Assembly: GCA_020161815.1 (NCBI GenBank)
Contig: JAIUOP010000006.1
Coordinates: 62,001 to 126,000, forward strand
Length of the DNA stretch: 64,000 nt
Direction: 5' to 3'
Source of the DNA: Actinomycetota bacterium
Lineage (GTDB): Bacteria > Actinomycetota > Actinomycetes > Actinomycetales > Dermatophilaceae
Made by a program: the position numbers and the translations under genes. The notes beneath the pieces were generated by a model. It saw only the letters and a list, made by a program, of their open reading frames with translations, had not been told where the DNA came from and did no database searches. This document shows, one piece after another, positions 47,641-54,378 of this stretch (within the stretch, counting starts at the first letter, position 1; the number at the start of each line of letters is the position of its first letter).

Positions 47641-50600
47641 TCAGCGCGAGGGGCTCACGGCACGGATGGCCGCGTGGACTCGCTTGTCGCTCACCTTCCC
47701 GACGACGCCGAGGGACTGGGCGAAGAGCGAGACACGCAGCTCCTCGATGAGCCAGCCGATGTCGGTGATCTCGGTGGCCCGCCGCCGGGCCGTGGGGAGG
47801 GACTCGAGCAGGTCGGCGTATGCCGTCTCCACACCGTCGATCGTGGCCTGCAGCTGCGCTTCGCGAGCGTTCTGCGGGGCGCGCTCGAGGCGCACGTCCA
47901 TGGCACGCAGGTAGCGGGTGAGGTCTCGCAAGCGCCCGACGCCGGTGTCGGCGACGAAGCCGGGACGGACGAGGCCGTCGAGCTGCGCCTGCACGTCGGC
48001 CCGGCTGGCGGCGAGCGTGCGCTGGGTCGTGGCGGCAGCGGCCGTGGCGTCGAGTCGGCGGCGGACCAGGGCGGCGGCCTCGAGCACCGGCACGACGTCA
48101 TCGACGACGCGCAGGACACCCGCGGCGAGGTGGGTGCGCACGGCGGCCAGCCCCGCGGCATACGCCTCCGGGGTCCGCACGTCGCCGGTGACGTGCTCGG
48201 CGACGATCGCGTCGACCGCTGCGGCCAGGCAGTCCTCGAGCAGCGCTGGGACGCTCCCGTGCGGGCCGGTGGCCAGGACCATCTTCTGCGCGTTGGTGAG
48301 GCGAGCCAGGACGCGCTTCCACGGCGCGGTGGTGCCGAGGAGCATGAGTCGGCGCACGCCCCGTCGATGCGCGGCGAGCGCCGTGCCCTCGTCGGCGATG
48401 ACTCGAAGGGCCACCGAGGTGCCCTCGTCCACCAGCGCCGGGAAGCCGTGCACCTCATGGCCTCCCGTGCGCCCGGTGAAGGTGCGCGGCACCGACCCGA
48501 TTGTCCAGTCCGTGAGCCCACGGCGCTCGAAGGTCGACCCTGCGGAGGCCATCCGGTCGCGGACCGCACCGGCGGAGCGCTCACGCAGGGCCGGCAGGTC
48601 CTTGCCGGTCGCCACGACCCGACCGCCGGGGGCCTCGACGGAGAAGGTGATCCTCAGGTGGTCCGGGACGCGGGCGAGGTCCCACTCCCCTGGCTCGATG
48701 CGGACGCCGGTGCGGGAGAACAGGACTCGGGCCAGCTCGTCGGTCAGCCGCGCCCCCGACGCGGGGTCGGCGTCGGCGAGGGCCGCCGCGGCGTGGTTGG
48801 GGGTGGGGACGAAGTGACGACGGGTCACCTTGGGCAGTGACTTGAGCAGCGCCACCGCGAGCTCCTCGCGCAGCCCGGGCACCTGCCAGTCGAAGCCGGT
48901 GTCTTCGACGCGATTGAGCACCTCGGCGGGGATGTGGACCGTGACCCCGTCGGCGGCTTCGCCCGGCGAGAACTGGTACGAGACAACGAGTTCCAGGTCG
49001 CCCTGACGCCACGTGCGCGGGTAGTCCTGCGCCGAGACCTCGGGTGCGGTGTCGCTTCGCAGCATCTCCTCGGTGAAGGTGAGCAGGTCTGGGCGGCGGC
49101 GGCGCTCACCGCGCCACCACCGGTCGAAGTGCCGCTCGCTGACCACGTCCGGCGGGATCCGCGCGTCGAAGAACTCGAAGATGACGTCGTCGTGGACGGT
49201 GAGGTCGCGTCGACGCGCCTGCTCCTCGAGCGCGGTCACGCGGGCGAGGGTGGCCTGGTTGTCCTTCCAGAACTGGTGCACCGGTTGCCAATCGCCCTCG
49301 ACGAGGGCACGCCGGATGAAGATCTCACGGGCCTGCTCGGGGTTGACCCGGGCGTACTGCATGGTCCGGTCCGCCGCGAGGGTGACGCCGTGGAGCGTGA
49401 CCCGCTCGCTGGCCAGCACGGCGCCCTGCTTCTTCGACCACCGCGGCTCGCTCACGGTCCGCTTGACCAGGTGGCCTGCGAGCTCCTCGGCCCACTCCGG
49501 CTCGATGCGCGCGTTGACGCGGGCCCACAGACGAGAGGTCTCGACGAGCTCGGCCGCCATGAGGAAGTCCGGCCGCGTCCGGAAGAGGACCGAGCCCGGG
49601 CTGATGCCGAAGCGTGCGCCCCGCGCGCCGAGGTACTCGCGCTTGAGTTCGTCCCACGCCCCGATGTGGCCGAGGAGGCCGGCGAGCAGGGCTTGGTGGA
49701 TGGTGTCCCAGTCGGGCTCCCCTCCGTGCGAGGCGGTGCCGAGGTCGGGGTCGATGCGCTGGCCCTTGCAGGCCTGCCGCAGCTGTTGGTGCAGGTCCTG
49801 CCACTCGCGAACCCTGAGGTAGTGGAGGTACTCGGCCTTGCACATCCGCCGGAAAGCGCTGTGGGACAGCGCCTTCTGCTGGTCCTTGAGGTAGCGCCAC
49901 AGGTTGTGCAGCGTGGCGAAGTCGCTGTCCTCGGCCTTGAAGCGCGCGTGCGACTGGGCGGCCTGTGCTTCCTTCTCGGCGGGGCGCTCCCGCGGGTCCT
50001 GGATCGACAGGGCCGCGACGATGACGAGGACTTCGCGGGTGCAGCCGCGCTGGCCGGCCTCGATGAGCATCCGGCCCAGGCGCGGGTCGACCGGGAGACG
50101 GGCCATCGTGCGTCCGTAGGCCGTGAGCCTGCGTCCGCGTCCTCGGTGCCGTCCCGGGGTGTCAGAGGTGGCGAAGGCGCCGAGCTCCTCGAGCAGGCGC
50201 ACGCCGTCGGCGACCTGCTTGGGGTCGGGGGCGTCGACGAACGGGAACCGGGTGACATCGCCCAGCCCCAGGGCGGTCATCTGGAGGATGACGCTGGCCA
50301 GGGAGGTGCGCTGGACCTCGGGCTCGGTGAAATCCAGCCGCGCCTCGAAGTCCTCCTCGGAGTAGAGGCGGATGCAGATGCCCTCGGCGACACGTCCGCA
50401 GCGGCCCGCCCGCTGGGCGGCACTCGCCTTGCTGATCGGCTCGATCGGGAGCCGCTGCACCTTGGTGCGCTGGCTGTACCTCGAGATGCGTGCCGTGCCG
50501 GTGTCGACGACGAAGCCGATGCCGGGCACGGTGAGCGAGGTCTCGGCGACATTGGTGGCCAGGATGATCCGGCGCTTCCCGCTGCGGTGGAAGACCCGGT

Positions 50601-51495
50601 GCTGCTCCGCCGAGGACAGGCGTGCGAAGAGCGGCAGGACCTCGGTGCCGGGCAGGTCGAGGGCGGTCAGCGCATCGGCGGCATCGCGGATCTCCCGCTC
50701 GCCGGAGAAGAAGACGAGGATGTCGGTCGCGTCCGAGCCGGGCGGGATCTCGGTCCACAGCTCCTCGACCGCCTCGACGACGCCGGTCACCTGGTCGCGT
50801 TCTGCGACCACGTGCTTGCCGTCGGGGCCGAGATCGACCAGTGGTCGATAACGGATCTCGACCGGATAGGTCCGGCCACTCACCTCGAGGATCGGGACCT
50901 CACGGACCGCCTGACCGCGCTCGTCGGTGCCGAAGTGACGGGCGAAGCGCTCGGGGTCGATCGTCGCGGAGGTGACGATGACCTTGAGGTCGGGTCTCCG
51001 CGGCAGGAGCTGCTTGAGGTAGCCGAGGATGAAGTCGATGTTGAGGGAGCGCTCGTGCGCCTCGTCGATGATGATCGTGTCGTAGCGCCGGAGGTCGCGG
51101 TCACGCTGCATCTCGTTGAGGAGGATGCCGTCGGTCATGACCTTGACGCGAGTCCGATCGCTGCTGTGGTCGGTGAAGCGCACCTGGTAGCCGACGAGTC
51201 CGGTGTCCTCGTCGCCCAGGGGCTCGTCGAGCTCCTCCGCGATCCGCTCCGCGACGGAGCGCGCCGCGATCCGGCGGGGCTGGGTGTGCCCGATCTGCCC
51301 GGCACGTCCCCGCCCGAGCTCCAGGCACATCTTGGGCAGCTGGGTGGTCTTGCCCGAGCCGGTTTCACCCGCGATGACGACGACCTGGTGGTCACGAATC
51401 GCCGTCAGGATGTCCTCGCGACGGGCGACGACGGGCAGGTGCTCGGGATAGTGCAGCAGCTCCCGGGCCACGGCGGCAGGGTCAGGAGCGGACAC
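47641..51495 (-). CDS. hrpA: ATP-dependent RNA helicase HrpA
   Basis: A 1284-residue DEAH-box helicase. Walker A GETGSGKTTQLPKMCLELG (near residue 43), TQPRRIAARSVAERIAEEL, motif II IIIDEAHERSLNIDFILGYL, motif III TSATI and motif VI SAAQRAGRCGRVAEG are followed by the HA2, OB and long DUF3418 domain of HrpA. E. coli HrpA resolves stalled ribosomes; the same role is inferred. Its GTG at 51495 is 6 nt behind TATCCT (51502-51507), which lies inside the last codons of the preceding gene, so it probably has its own leaderless promoter as well as read-through. Confidence 0.94.
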   Translation of the reverse strand: MSAPDPAAVARELLHYPEHLPVVARREDILTAIRDHQVVVIAGETGSGKTTQLPKMCLELGRGRAGQIGHTQPRRIAARSVAERIAEELDEPLGDEDTGLVGYQVRFTDHSSDRTRVKVMTDGILLNEMQRDRDLRRYDTIIIDEAHERSLNIDFILGYLKQLLPRRPDLKVIVTSATIDPERFARHFGTDERGQAVREVPILEVSGRTYPVEIRYRPLVDLGPDGKHVVAERDQVTGVVEAVEELWTEIPPGSDATDILVFFSGEREIRDAADALTALDLPGTEVLPLFARLSSAEQHRVFHRSGKRRIILATNVAETSLTVPGIGFVVDTGTARISRYSQRTKVQRLPIEPISKASAAQRAGRCGRVAEGICIRLYSEEDFEARLDFTEPEVQRTSLASVILQMTALGLGDVTRFPFVDAPDPKQVADGVRLLEELGAFATSDTPGRHRGRGRRLTAYGRTMARLPVDPRLGRMLIEAGQRGCTREVLVIVAALSIQDPRERPAEKEAQAAQSHARFKAEDSDFATLHNLWRYLKDQQKALSHSAFRRMCKAEYLHYLRVREWQDLHQQLRQACKGQRIDPDLGTASHGGEPDWDTIHQALLAGLLGHIGAWDELKREYLGARGARFGISPGSVLFRTRPDFLMAAELVETSRLWARVNARIEPEWAEELAGHLVKRTVSEPRWSKKQGAVLASERVTLHGVTLAADRTMQYARVNPEQAREIFIRRALVEGDWQPVHQFWKDNQATLARVTALEEQARRRDLTVHDDVIFEFFDARIPPDVVSERHFDRWWRGERRRRPDLLTFTEEMLRSDTAPEVSAQDYPRTWRQGDLELVVSYQFSPGEAADGVTVHIPAEVLNRVEDTGFDWQVPGLREELAVALLKSLPKVTRRHFVPTPNHAAAALADADPASGARLTDELARVLFSRTGVRIEPGEWDLARVPDHLRITFSVEAPGGRVVATGKDLPALRERSAGAVRDRMASAGSTFERRGLTDWTIGSVPRTFTGRTGGHEVHGFPALVDEGTSVALRVIADEGTALAAHRRGVRRLMLLGTTAPWKRVLARLTNAQKMVLATGPHGSVPALLEDCLAAAVDAIVAEHVTGDVRTPEAYAAGLAAVRTHLAAGVLRVVDDVVPVLEAAALVRRRLDATAAAATTQRTLAASRADVQAQLDGLVRPGFVADTGVGRLRDLTRYLRAMDVRLERAPQNAREAQLQATIDGVETAYADLLESLPTARRRATEITDIGWLIEELRVSLFAQSLGVVGKVSDKRVHAAIRAVSPSR

Positions 51496-51498
51496 CGG

Positions 51499-52704
51499 TC
51501 AAGGATAGGTGTCCTGGTTGGGCTGGCCCTCGATCACGCCGGGCAGCCGCTTGGCGGCCTGCTCGAGGGTGACCCCCTCGACGTACATCCGTTGCGCCTG
51601 CGGGCCATTGGCCGAGGCGAGACGCCACCCCAGGGTCTTGGCGCTCACCTGCTCCTCGAGAGTGCGCCCCACGCGCGGGGGAACGGCTCGCAGTCGATCC
51701 CGCCAGGGCAGGGAGGGCGATGGCGCCTGCCCCGACATCCGACTCGGCGTGGGCGTGTCGGGCAGCCCGAAGATCGGCGGGCCGGTCTGGCCCGTGGCCT
51801 TCTGGACCCAGGCACGAGCCTTTGCCCTGCCCTCGGCCCTGACCCCCTCGCGCAGCCGCGCGCCCGTCGTCCACGTCTCGGTGACCCGGACCGTGCGGAC
51901 CGTGCGACCCCCCGTTGTCGTGACCTGCTCGACCGCGCCGAGCCCGGAGGCCCGCTTGAGCACCCGTCCCCAGCTCCCGAGCCCGGCAATCGCCGCATTG
52001 ACGGCGACCTGGTCCCAGCCACCCTCGTTCCAGAAGGCCCGCAGGAGCCCGTCGGCCGCCGTGGAGACCACCGCGTGCGCAGCCCCGAGCGGCGGCAGGA
52101 TCACTCCCGGCACGCTGAGCAGGTCGGAGGCAAAGCTCTGGCTCGAGGCGGAGTGGACCGCGCGGTAGGTCGCGCTGTCGGCCAGCACGTCGTCGCTGGC
52201 CCGCGCGAGGGCGAGCGCGCACGCCCGGTCCGCGGCGTCGAACTCCGCGAGCGCGCGGGCATGCGCGTCCTCGGCGTCGCGCTGCCGGACCAGGCACCCG
52301 TGTTGCGAGGCCCGCAGCACCACGACTGTGGGGTCCAGCTCGGTCGCCCCGGCGCTCAGCTGTCGCCAGATCTCGTCCTCGAGGACGGCATAGCGCCGCA
52401 CGGCATCCGCCTGCTCCTCGACGGCCGCCGTGGCGCGGGCCTGGGTGTCGGCGAGCACGGGGGCGAACGCGCGCAGGGCCGCCGCGCACCCGGCATACCG
52501 ATCCGCGGCCGCCTCGAGCACCGGGCGCACCCCGCCGATCCGACTGGCGAAGGCCTCCCCCGCCGGCCCCTCCCAGACGGCGCCGGCGCTGAGCCCGGAG
52601 AGATCCGCGGCGGCTGCCGCGAAGCGGGTGGCGCTGCCGGTGAGGGCTCCGGCGAGCACGAGGCAGGCGTCGGCGTCTCCGCTGATCGGGGCGAGGATGG
52701 TCAT
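51499..52704 (-). CDS. WXG100/LXG-like putative type VII secretion-associated protein
   Basis: A 401-residue protein not assignable to a characterised family. The first ~110 residues are helical with a WxG turn (GAVWEGPAGEAFASRIGG) like WXG100/LXG proteins. A long Ala-rich helical part with many Ala, Arg, Asp and Glu follows, then a C-terminal region (TTTGGRTVRTVRVTETWTTG and VEGVTLEQAAKRLPGVIEG) with no recognised toxin motif. ATG 52704 shares ATGA with the stop of the small gene upstream. No immunity gene or T7SS ATPase is nearby. Secretion is inferred only from the WXG-like start. Confidence 0.5.
   Translation of the reverse strand: MTILAPISGDADACLVLAGALTGSATRFAAAAADLSGLSAGAVWEGPAGEAFASRIGGVRPVLEAAADRYAGCAAALRAFAPVLADTQARATAAVEEQADAVRRYAVLEDEIWRQLSAGATELDPTVVVLRASQHGCLVRQRDAEDAHARALAEFDAADRACALALARASDDVLADSATYRAVHSASSQSFASDLLSVPGVILPPLGAAHAVVSTAADGLLRAFWNEGGWDQVAVNAAIAGLGSWGRVLKRASGLGAVEQVTTTGGRTVRTVRVTETWTTGARLREGVRAEGRAKARAWVQKATGQTGPPIFGLPDTPTPSRMSGQAPSPSLPWRDRLRAVPPRVGRTLEEQVSAKTLGWRLASANGPQAQRMYVEGVTLEQAAKRLPGVIEGQPNQDTYP
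51502..51507 (-). promoter_or_regulatory. -10 box for leaderless hrpA mRNA
   Basis: TATCCT on the minus strand encodes the end of the preceding protein (Tyr-Pro) and lies 6 nt (TGACCG, containing that gene's stop) before the hrpA GTG. Confidence 0.45.
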
Positions 52705-52994
52705 CGCTCGCCGCCGATCATCAGGCGCTCCACGTTGCCCGTCTCCGCCTCGAGGTAGACAGCGCCCGCCGTGGCCGCGGCTGCGCCGAGGTCGTCGAGG
52801 GAGGCGGCCAGGAGCAACCGCTCGTGGCGCCAGTGCGTCATCGCCTCCTCGAAGGCGCCCGACGCCGCGGCATTGCCCAGGGCCCACGCGTCCGACCGCA
52901 CGGACTCCCCCTGCGTGGCGACACCCTGGGCGAGCTCGCTGAGGGCCAGGCCCAGGGCGGCGACCTGTGCGCCGTCGACGCGGTAGGACGACAT
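52701..52994 (-). CDS. Small helical WXG/EspC-like protein
   Basis: A 97-residue all-helical protein: SYRVDGAQVAALGLALSELA, VRSDAWALGNAAASGAFEEA, then a second helix (RHERLLLAASLDDLGAAAAT). Size, helical-hairpin appearance and the ALGNAAASGAF turn resemble ESX-associated EspC/WXG100-like proteins of actinobacteria. It probably pairs with the 401-residue protein encoded next, with which it overlaps by 4 nt. Its ATG is 6 nt behind TACCCT (53001-53006), so it is probably leaderless. Confidence 0.55.
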   Translation of the reverse strand: MSSYRVDGAQVAALGLALSELAQGVATQGESVRSDAWALGNAAASGAFEEAMTHWRHERLLLAASLDDLGAAAATAGAVYLEAETGNVERLMIGGER

Positions 52995-53000
52995 GTCGGC

Positions 53001-53006
53001 AGGGTA
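53001..53006 (-). promoter_or_regulatory. -10 box for the WXG-like operon
   Basis: TACCCT on the minus strand, 6 nt before the ATG at 52994. Its -35 region would fall inside the metY terminator hairpin. Confidence 0.4.
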
Positions 53007-53010
53007 GACA

Positions 53011-53050
53011 AAGGAGCCTGTGGCACCTTTCGGTTATCCACAGGCTCCTT
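53011..53050 (-). terminator. Rho-independent-like terminator of metY
   Basis: A perfect 13-bp stem AAGGAGCCTGTGG / CCACAGGCTCCTT (53011-53023 and 53038-53050) with a 14-nt loop lies 11 nt after the metY stop. On the minus strand it is followed by a short T-rich stretch (TTTGTCT). Confidence 0.8.
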
Positions 53051-53061
53051 CCCCCGGTGCG

Positions 53062-54378
53062 TCATCGAGCTGCGGAGAACCCCTGCTCGAGGTCGGCGAG
53101 GATGTCCTCGATCGACTCCAGCCCGACGGCCAGTCGGACCAGCCCGGGCGTCACCCCGGCCGCGAGGCGGTCCTCGTCCCCGCCCTGGCTGTGCGTCGTC
53201 GTCGCCGGGTGGATCGCCAGCGAGCGCACGTCACCGATGTTGGCGACGTGGCTGTGCAGGGTCAGCGACTCCACGAACTTCTGGCCCGCCTCCTTGCCGC
53301 CCTTGATCTCGAAGGCGAGGACGGCGCCGGCGCCCTTGGGTGCGTACTTCTGGGCCCGCTCGTAGGCCGGGTGGCCCGGCAGCGAGGCCCAGACGACCGA
53401 CTCGACCTGCTCGTGGTCCTGGAGGAACTCCGCCACGCGGCGGGCGTTGGCCAGGTGCCGCTCGACCCGCAGCGACAGGGTCTCGATGCCCTGCGCGAGG
53501 AGGAAGGCGTTGAACGGCGAGATCGCCGGGCCGAGGTCACGCAGCAGCTGCACGCGTGCCTTGAGCCCGAAGGAGACGTTGGCGCCGAAGGCACCGTCCT
53601 TGCCGAGGTCTCGCGCGTAGACCAGCCCGTGGTAGCTCTCGTCCGGGGTGTTCCAGCCGGGGAACTTCTCCGGGTCCGCGCCGAAGTCGAAGCTCCCACC
53701 GTCGACGATGACGCCCGCGATCGAGGTGCCGTGGCCGCCGAGGTACTTCGTCGCCGAGTGCACGACGACGTCGGCGCCGTGCTTGAGCGGGTTGAGGACG
53801 TAGGGCGTGGCGATCGTGTTGTCGACGACGAGCGGGACACCGTGCTCGTGGGCCACCGCCGCCACCGCCTCGATGTCGAGGACGTCGGCCTTGGGGTTGG
53901 CGATCGTCTCGGCGAAGAAGGCCTTGGTGTTGGGACGCACCGCAGCCGCCCAGGCCTGCGGGTCGTTCTGGTCCTCGACGAAGGAGGTCTGGATCCCCAG
54001 GCGCGCGAAGGAGTACTTGAGCAGGTTGAAGGTCCCGCCGTAGAGCGCCGTCGAGGCGACGATGTGGTCGCCGGCCTCGGCGATGTTGTGCAGAGCCAAC
54101 GTCGTCGCGGCCTGGCCGGAGGCGACCAGCAGCGCACCGATGCCGCCCTCGAGGGCCGCGATCCGGTCCTCCACGGCGGCCTGCGTCGGGTTCATGATCC
54201 GCGTGTAGATGTTGCCGAGTTCCCTCAGCGCGAACAGGTTGGCGGCGTGCTCGGAGTCCCTGAAGACGTAGGACGTCGTCTGGTAGATCGGCAGCGCCCG
54301 CGCGCCGGTGGCCGGGTCGGGCGCCTGGCCGGCGTGGATCTGGCGGGTCTCGAAACCCCAGGTGCTCGGGTCGGACAT
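53062..54378 (-). CDS. metY: O-acetyl-L-homoserine sulfhydrylase
   Basis: A 438-residue Cys/Met-metabolism PLP enzyme. GFETRQIHAGQAPDPATGAR then ALPIYQTTSYVFRDSEHAAN opens it, typical of O-acetylhomoserine sulfhydrylases rather than cystathionine synthases. The PLP Lys is in VVHSATKYLGGHGTSIAGV, and RLAVGLESIEDILADLEQGF ends it. It makes homocysteine from O-acetylhomoserine and sulfide, the step after MetX. ATG 54378 has AAGGAGA upstream. Controlled by a SAM-IV riboswitch and ended by a strong hairpin. Confidence 0.95.
   Translation of the reverse strand: MSDPSTWGFETRQIHAGQAPDPATGARALPIYQTTSYVFRDSEHAANLFALRELGNIYTRIMNPTQAAVEDRIAALEGGIGALLVASGQAATTLALHNIAEAGDHIVASTALYGGTFNLLKYSFARLGIQTSFVEDQNDPQAWAAAVRPNTKAFFAETIANPKADVLDIEAVAAVAHEHGVPLVVDNTIATPYVLNPLKHGADVVVHSATKYLGGHGTSIAGVIVDGGSFDFGADPEKFPGWNTPDESYHGLVYARDLGKDGAFGANVSFGLKARVQLLRDLGPAISPFNAFLLAQGIETLSLRVERHLANARRVAEFLQDHEQVESVVWASLPGHPAYERAQKYAPKGAGAVLAFEIKGGKEAGQKFVESLTLHSHVANIGDVRSLAIHPATTTHSQGGDEDRLAAGVTPGLVRLAVGLESIEDILADLEQGFSAAR

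What the first reader, a model, noticed from the sequence alone, without database searches (positions are those of the whole stretch)
51499..52994. Orphan WXG/T7SS-like gene pair without secretion ATPase or immunity gene, next to hrpA
A 97-residue helical protein and a 401-residue protein with a WxG turn are coupled by 4 nt and probably leaderless. The layout resembles T7SS substrates with a small partner. The C-terminal ~200 residues match no toxin I recognise, and the only downstream gene is a housekeeping helicase. It may be an undescribed secreted factor or a cytoplasmic module using the WXG fold.
Basis: inference. Interest (0 to 1): 0.6.

Follow-up and report, generated by a model that had tools for sequence, protein, structure and literature searches.

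The report
Secreted-protein pair of a scattered secretion system
Two overlapping genes in an actinobacterium look like a small carrier protein and a larger cargo protein of a type VII secretion system whose motor gene lies elsewhere on the chromosome but carries the same unusual, precisely spaced promoter, which suggests an undescribed, scattered version of this bacterial export machine.

Summary
The gene pair is real: 97-aa (P97) and 401-aa (P401) genes overlap by 4 nt and end 3 nt before hrpA. It is conserved as a pair, usually between a methionine-biosynthesis gene and hrpA, in 69 of 188 genomes of its family (Dermatophilaceae/Intrasporangiaceae). P97 is a WXG100-like hairpin with the T7SS export motif YxxxE/D (51 of 52 homologues). 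P401 carries an invariant WxG/WxS turn, and its N-terminal ~170 residues recur on other T7SS-type proteins.

It is not an orphan. The genome holds a full ESX (T7SSa) locus, and also a lone FHA-FtsK EssC-like ATPase and an orphan WXG100. P97, the EssC-like ATPase, the orphan WXG100 and one membrane protein share a rare promoter: TGTGGANAA, 27 nt, TANNNT. With a leaderless ATG, the pattern has only three exact hits in 3.06 Mb. Across relatives it precedes the ATPase in about 37 of 41 genomes that have the pair and 0 of 20 sampled without it. The ESX genes lack it.

Best reading: a PE/PPE- or Lap/LXG-like substrate pair exported by a dispersed, EssC-type T7SS. The function of the C-terminal half is unknown; there is no toxin domain or immunity gene. 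Export itself is untested.

The parts
52701..52994 (-). P97: 97-aa WXG100/EspC-like small partner with C-terminal YLEAE (YxxxE) export motif at residues 80-84
   Evidence: WXG100 E=0.056, below cut-off; profile-profile with orphan WXG100: prob 94.5, E 7.8e-8
51499..52704 (-). P401: 401-aa putative T7SS substrate; N-terminal helical WXG/PPE-like domain (about 1-170), low-confidence hydrophobic middle (about 175-255), least conserved C-terminal part (about 256-389)
   Evidence: (T7SS_signal E=0.024, below cut-off)
52701..52704 (-). 4-nt gene overlap (ATGA), conserved in 43 of 49 homologous pairs
53034..53042 (-). Upstream box TGTGGATAA (reverse complement TTATCCACA, DnaA-box-like); only TGTGGANAA in the window
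   Evidence: 0.19 expected per window by shuffling
53001..53006 (-). -10-like hexamer TACCCT, 27 nt from the box and 6 nt before the P97 ATG (leaderless start)
53011..53050 (.). Inverted repeat AAGGAGCCTGTGG...CCACAGGCTCCTT between the upstream gene and P97; probable terminator of the upstream gene overlapping the box
   Evidence: read directly; not scored by a terminator tool
47641..51495 (-). hrpA-type RNA helicase, 3 nt downstream of P401 (neighbour, probably not part of the system)
   Evidence: downstream in most relatives, but other genes intervene in several
53062..54378 (-). PLP-dependent methionine-biosynthesis enzyme (439 aa; O-acetylhomoserine-sulfhydrylase-like by inspection), upstream neighbour conserved in synteny
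   Evidence: enzyme name recalled, not searched

Best explanation
P97 and P401 form a T7SS substrate pair. Translation is coupled by the 4-nt overlap. P97 (WXG100-like, carrying YxxxE) pairs with the N-terminal WxG/WxS helical domain of P401 to form a composite export signal of the PE/PPE or Lap/LXG type. The signal is read in trans by the FHA-FtsK EssC-like ATPase encoded elsewhere (contig C1, about 552.3-556.4 kb), together with the orphan WXG100 (C1, about 168.3-168.6 kb). Pair, ATPase, WXG100 and a small membrane protein are expressed from one class of promoter: a TGTGGANAA box centred near -44, exactly 27 nt, then TANNNT. Three of the four start leaderlessly; the WXG100 has a 50-nt leader. 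P401 would be exported as a lineage-specific effector or envelope protein, not a polymorphic toxin. Shown: gene anatomy, conservation, motifs, shared promoter sequence, presence of the ATPase. Inferred: dimer formation, co-expression, export, choice of ATPase, function.
For: Pair conserved in 69/188 family genomes and kept together in the loci read. YxxxE/D in 51/52 small partners against 18% in shuffles. Invariant W44 and F52 in P401. Family members hit T7SS_signal, WXG100, PPE and EspA_EspE, EspC and WXG100. P97 profile matches ESAT-6 and EsxB in PDB (E 8e-4, 5e-3) and the orphan WXG100. P401 N-domain recurs on other proteins, one with a CdiA_C toxin tip. Shared promoter: only 3 exact hits in the genome, 0 in control; present at the orphan WXG100 in 9/12 strict, 11/12 loose; at the EssC-like gene in 32/41 pair-bearing genomes strict and 37/41 loose, 0/20 sampled without the pair. 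Spacer exactly 27 nt in 72/100, 26-28 in 96/100. ESX genes lack it. Genomes with FtsK as the only such ATPase, where near-complete, lack P401.
Against: No experiment shows export or dimerisation. In the window's own proteins WXG100 and T7SS_signal scores are below curated cut-offs. Foldseek E-values are not significant (best 0.17 and 0.035) and P401 also matches BAR domains. The central motif is WxS, not WxG, in 33 of 52 homologues. P401 is absent from many genomes that keep an EssC-like ATPase. The promoter also precedes RadC, DUF222-HNH and DinG-like genes in relatives, so it is not exclusive to T7SS. Presence and promoter patterns are phylogenetically correlated.
Confidence: 0.7

Rival explanations
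1. P401/P97 are an accessory part of the dispersed T7SS machine (adaptor or envelope component) rather than exported cargo.
For: Single copy, syntenic, no immunity gene, promoter shared with ATPase and WXG100; motif present at the ATPase mainly in genomes that have the pair.
Against: Many genomes keep the EssC-like ATPase without P401, and in some of these other small/large pairs sit behind the same promoter (L227, L231, L232), as expected of interchangeable substrates.
Confidence: 0.15
2. The pair is a substrate of the genome's complete ESX-type (T7SSa) system on contig C3.
For: A full locus exists: EccB, EccC, EccD, MycP and an Esx pair; 26 of 34 EccB-bearing genomes have P401.
Against: 39 of 65 P401-bearing genomes (BLAST count) lack EccB, including the complete sister genome G167, identified as Phycicoccus elongatus. 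ESX genes do not share the promoter.
Confidence: 0.1
3. P401 is an antibacterial toxin with an unrecognised C-terminal domain and an immunity gene elsewhere, or self-protected by localisation.
For: Toxin-like layout (targeting domain, hydrophobic middle, C-terminal part); C-terminal part diverges fastest (21% mean identity against 32% for the N-terminal domain); a related N-domain protein carries a toxin tip.
Against: C-terminal part remains alignable across 15 genera with no domain swapping seen; no immunity gene beside the syntenic loci; no toxin family hit.
Confidence: 0.12
4. Cytoplasmic module that only borrows the WXG fold and has nothing to do with secretion.
For: No export data; weak curated-model scores.
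Against: Conserved YxxxE/D export motif, links to T7SS domains and promoter shared with ATPase and WXG100.
Confidence: 0.05

Closest known systems
PE/PPE heterodimers of mycobacterial ESX systems (e.g. PE25-PPE41, PE5-PPE4)
   Same: Small partner with YxxxE and larger partner with WxG-type turn and long helices, adjacent genes; Foldseek places the P401 N-domain on PPE4/PPE15 (prob 1.00, TM 0.53-0.54 on target, E about 0.1)
   Different: No PE or PPE signature; PPE Pfam matched in only 3 of 27 members; no EspG gene looked for; occurs in genomes without ESX core genes
EspA/EspC pair of ESX-1
   Same: Adjacent genes for a ~100-aa YxxxD/E protein and a ~400-aa WxG-type protein encoded away from the secretion locus; weak Pfam hits to EspC (4/32) and EspA_EspE (1/27)
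   Different: Small gene first, low similarity, promoter shared with an EssC-like ATPase rather than ESX genes
LXG toxin plus Lap partners of T7SSb
   Same: Small helical partner next to a protein with an N-terminal helical targeting domain
   Different: No LXG family hit, no immunity gene, no swapped toxin tip
T7SSd of Actinomycetota (Garrett et al. 2024, PMC11217815)
   Same: FHA-bearing EssC-like ATPase plus WXG100 in an actinobacterium; phosphothreonine-type FHA residues present by inspection
   Different: T7SSd is a gene cluster with TsdD kinase, TsdH and TsdI; here ATPase, WXG100 and substrate pair are scattered single loci tied by a shared promoter

Membership tests
WXG100 (PF06013) for P97 | Score above curated cut-off | tested here: not met
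   14.2 bits against 27.3; 3 of 32 members reach E<0.01
WXG100 (PF06013) for P97 | ~100 aa helical hairpin | tested here: met
   AF2 pLDDT 82; best Foldseek hits are EsxA/EsxB, TM about 0.7, but E 0.17
WXG100 (PF06013) for P97 | Central WxG | tested here: not met
   P97 has WALG at the turn; WxG lies in P401
WXG100 (PF06013) for P97 | C-terminal YxxxD/E | tested here: met
   51 of 52 homologues
T7SS substrate pair (functional class) | Composite WxG plus YxxxE signal on two adjacent proteins | tested here: met
   W44/F52 invariant, YxxxE/D >90%; position +2 is G in 18 and S in 33 of 52
T7SS substrate pair (functional class) | Heterodimer and export | not testable with these tools
   needs pull-down and secretome
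T7SS substrate pair (functional class) | Cognate ATPase in the genome | tested here: met
   EccC and EssC-like both present
PE/PPE | PE and PPE N-terminal signatures | tested here: not met
   no hit for P0001/P0002; PPE E<0.01 in 3 of 27 relatives only
LXG polymorphic toxin | LXG domain and variable toxin tip with adjacent immunity gene | tested here: not met
   no LXG or toxin family; alignable C-terminus; no immunity gene in syntenic loci
T7SSd (for the linked ATPase) | FHA-bearing EssC-like ATPase and WXG100 | tested here: met
   FHA E 1.6e-8, FtsK_SpoIIIE 7e-35, EssC model 349 bits but cut-off 778; orphan WXG100
T7SSd (for the linked ATPase) | Clustered TsdD, TsdH, TsdI | tested here: not met
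   neighbours of the ATPase are Tad pilus genes and housekeeping genes; components elsewhere not searched

The most novel reading that the evidence does not exclude
A dispersed T7SS subtype of Dermatophilaceae/Intrasporangiaceae: an FHA-FtsK ATPase, an orphan WXG100, a small membrane protein and unlinked substrate pairs are scattered over the chromosome and bound into one regulon by a fixed-geometry promoter (TGTGGANAA, 27 nt, TANNNT). The box matches actinobacterial DnaA boxes (TTNTCCACA), so export may be tied to replication state or DNA damage.
Probability: 0.4. Interest if true: 0.78.

Novelty: new variant of a known kind. Interest (0 to 1): 0.62.

Why it matters
T7SS is normally recognised by gene clusters, so a scattered system is missed by cluster-based annotation. 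The promoter gives a sequence tag that finds ATPase, WXG100 and unlinked substrates together, and makes the role of orphan WXG100 and WXG-like pairs in these bacteria directly testable. It also offers a regulatory handle: one unknown activator, possibly DnaA, would control the whole set.

Tried and rejected
Single-protein scan of genome contigs found no relatives and the broad alignment had no usable stretch. Plasmid and phage records gave no match, so mobile origin is not supported. Structure alignments were limited to rows from the search for related loci (11-12 sequences), so model quality is modest. BAR-domain Foldseek hits of P401 were set aside as long-helix similarity (high rmsd). hhalign of full P401 with WXG100 was negative. 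I considered a polymorphic toxin, an ESX substrate and a cytoplasmic module, and ranked them as rivals. Functional coupling to hrpA was rejected: other genes intervene in several relatives.

Full report
What is there. On the minus strand, P97 (52701-52994) and P401 (51499-52704) overlap by 4 nt. hrpA begins 3 nt after P401, and a methionine-biosynthesis enzyme lies upstream. The window is contig C6:62001-126000 of a 3.06-Mb genome rated 100% complete. A same-genus genome, G167, has a contig of the same length as NZ_HF570956.1, Phycicoccus elongatus Lp2, so the host is a Phycicoccus/Nostocoides-type actinobacterium.

Conservation. BLAST finds P401 in 65 of 188 family genomes. A 27-sequence profile finds 69 at E<=1e-13 in 15 genera, plus weaker matches to its N-terminal ~170 residues in other, differently ended proteins. 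The order enzyme-P97-P401-hrpA is conserved in most loci; in others the pair stays together while genes are inserted between it and hrpA. The 4-nt overlap holds in 43 of 49 pairs.

Anatomy of P97. [YF]xxx[DE] is present near the C-terminus in 51 of 52 homologues, against 18% in shuffled C-terminal parts. The longer WXG100 pattern described in PMC3935865 (HxxxD/ExxhxxxH) fits 41 of 52 by my regular expression. The model is a helical hairpin. The profile aligns with the genome's orphan WXG100 family with the YxxxE columns superposed and with ESAT-6/CFP-10.

Anatomy of P401. W44 and F52 are invariant; residue +2 from the Trp is Gly in 18 and Ser in 33 of 52. The model gives helices 11-41, 47-117 and 125-170 with the WEG turn at 44-46 (block pLDDT 70-98), then a low-confidence region. 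Foldseek lists PPE4 and PPE15 with probability 1.00, but E about 0.1, among BAR domains. Relatives hit T7SS_signal (8/27), WXG100 (3), PPE (3) and EspA_EspE (1); small partners hit EspC (4/32) and WXG100 (3). None of these reaches a curated cut-off in the window's own proteins. Mean pairwise identity is 32% (N-terminal), 29% (middle) and 21% (C-terminal).

The N-domain elsewhere. Profile matches in other genera mostly sit at or near the N-terminus of proteins that follow a small partner gene. One (L138) ends in a CdiA_C toxin domain; two score above the T7SS_signal cut-off (L132, L133). This supports a targeting role for the P401 N-domain.

Not an orphan. Contig C3 carries EccB, EccC, EccD, mycosin and an Esx pair. 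A second ATPase on C1 (1371 aa; FHA, FtsK_SpoIIIE, hydrophobic segment near 246-286, one canonical Walker A at 645) resembles EssC (349 bits, below the 778-bit equivalog cut-off) and lies beside Tad pilus genes. A canonical WXG100 lies alone near groEL. Many P401-bearing genomes, including G167, lack EccB, but near-complete ones have a second FtsK/SpoIIIE ATPase besides FtsK. Eleven P401-less genomes show a single FtsK-level match, among them the near-complete G022, G023, G082, G083, G116 and G120. Exceptions among P401-bearing genomes (G027, G035, G102, G164) are fragmented drafts; G027 and G035 do show EssC-like pieces.

Shared promoter, own genome. Upstream of P97, relatives share CTGTGGANAAC and TAGCGT-type hexamers ending 6-7 nt before the ATG. 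The pattern TGTGGANAA-N24-32-TANNNT-N5-8-ATG occurs three times in the whole genome and never in the reversed control: at P97, at the EssC-like ATPase and at a 190-aa protein with a strong hydrophobic segment, next to lipB. The orphan WXG100 has the same element 50 nt before its start; across 12 loci from different genomes it is strict in 9 and loose in 11. The ESX genes do not have it.

Shared promoter, relatives. In 188 genomes the reversed control gave one hit in all. Of 60 non-P97 sites fetched, 34 begin an EssC-like gene. Others begin WXG-like pairs or WXG100 genes (L221, L227, L228, L229, L231, L232; L192 and L182 less certain), and some begin RadC, DUF222-HNH and a DinG-like helicase. 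In pair-bearing genomes G025-G093 the EssC-like gene has it in 32 of 41 strictly and 37 of 41 loosely; in 20 EssC-like genes sampled from pair-less genomes, 0. Two genomes without a clear pair (G050, G081) do have it, and several g44/g47 genomes gave no match at the ATPase copy fetched. The spacer is 27 nt in 72 of 100 distinct promoters and 26-28 in 96 (part of this set was chosen with a 24-32 window).

Mechanism. The fixed distance places the box about -48 to -40 from a leaderless start, where an activator bordering the -35 region would sit (inference). The box reads TTNTCCACA on the other strand; TTGTCCACA is the Streptomyces and M. tuberculosis DnaA box (PMC4285127), and DnaA can act as a transcription factor (abstract of PMC8203912). 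Whether DnaA binds here is unknown. In the proposed model the pair is made together with its ATPase and WXG100, dimerises, and is exported.

Compared with what is known. The pair works like PE/PPE, EspC/EspA or Lap/LXG pairs but meets the family definitions only in part (see membership table). The ATPase recalls T7SSd (PMC11217815), but T7SSd is a cluster with TsdD, TsdH and TsdI; here the parts are scattered. I found no description of such a regulon in the papers searched, which is a limited search.

Limits. Phylogenetic non-independence was not modelled; co-occurrence numbers are descriptive. Structure models rest on 11-12 sequences. Export, dimerisation and regulation are untested.

Noticed in passing
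L144:8895-9467 (genome C6:48894-49466, minus strand): A 190-aa protein with one strong hydrophobic segment and no family match, overlapping the end of lipB, shares the rare promoter; a Ser/Thr kinase gene lies about 1.4 kb away on the far side of lipB. Candidate extra parts of the scattered system.
   Followed up: partly
L184, L188, L190, L191 (DUF222-HNH type), L185 (RadC), L176 (DinG-like helicase): The same box-27-TANNNT promoter also starts DNA-processing genes in relatives, and several G072-G079 sites contain GAAC-N4-GTTC SOS-like boxes, hinting at a DNA-damage or competence link.
   Followed up: partly
L090:9306-11511 (genome C3:10305-12510): A second small/large pair (96 and 388 aa, 4-nt overlap) followed by a 251-aa membrane protein, without the promoter; a separate T7SS-type pair, perhaps with an immunity-like gene.
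   Followed up: no
L131, L139, L222: Other WXG-like pairs sit just upstream of dxr in other genera, another conserved 'orphan' location.
   Followed up: no
L180, L182, L192: Three-gene cassettes (about 79-111 aa, 98-180 aa, about 162 aa) behind the promoter; the first two genes look WXG-like by eye, but the first matches no Pfam family.
   Followed up: partly
window 53011-53050: Inverted repeat that overlaps the promoter box and probably terminates the upstream gene; g27 genomes also have a repeat here with other sequence.
   Followed up: no
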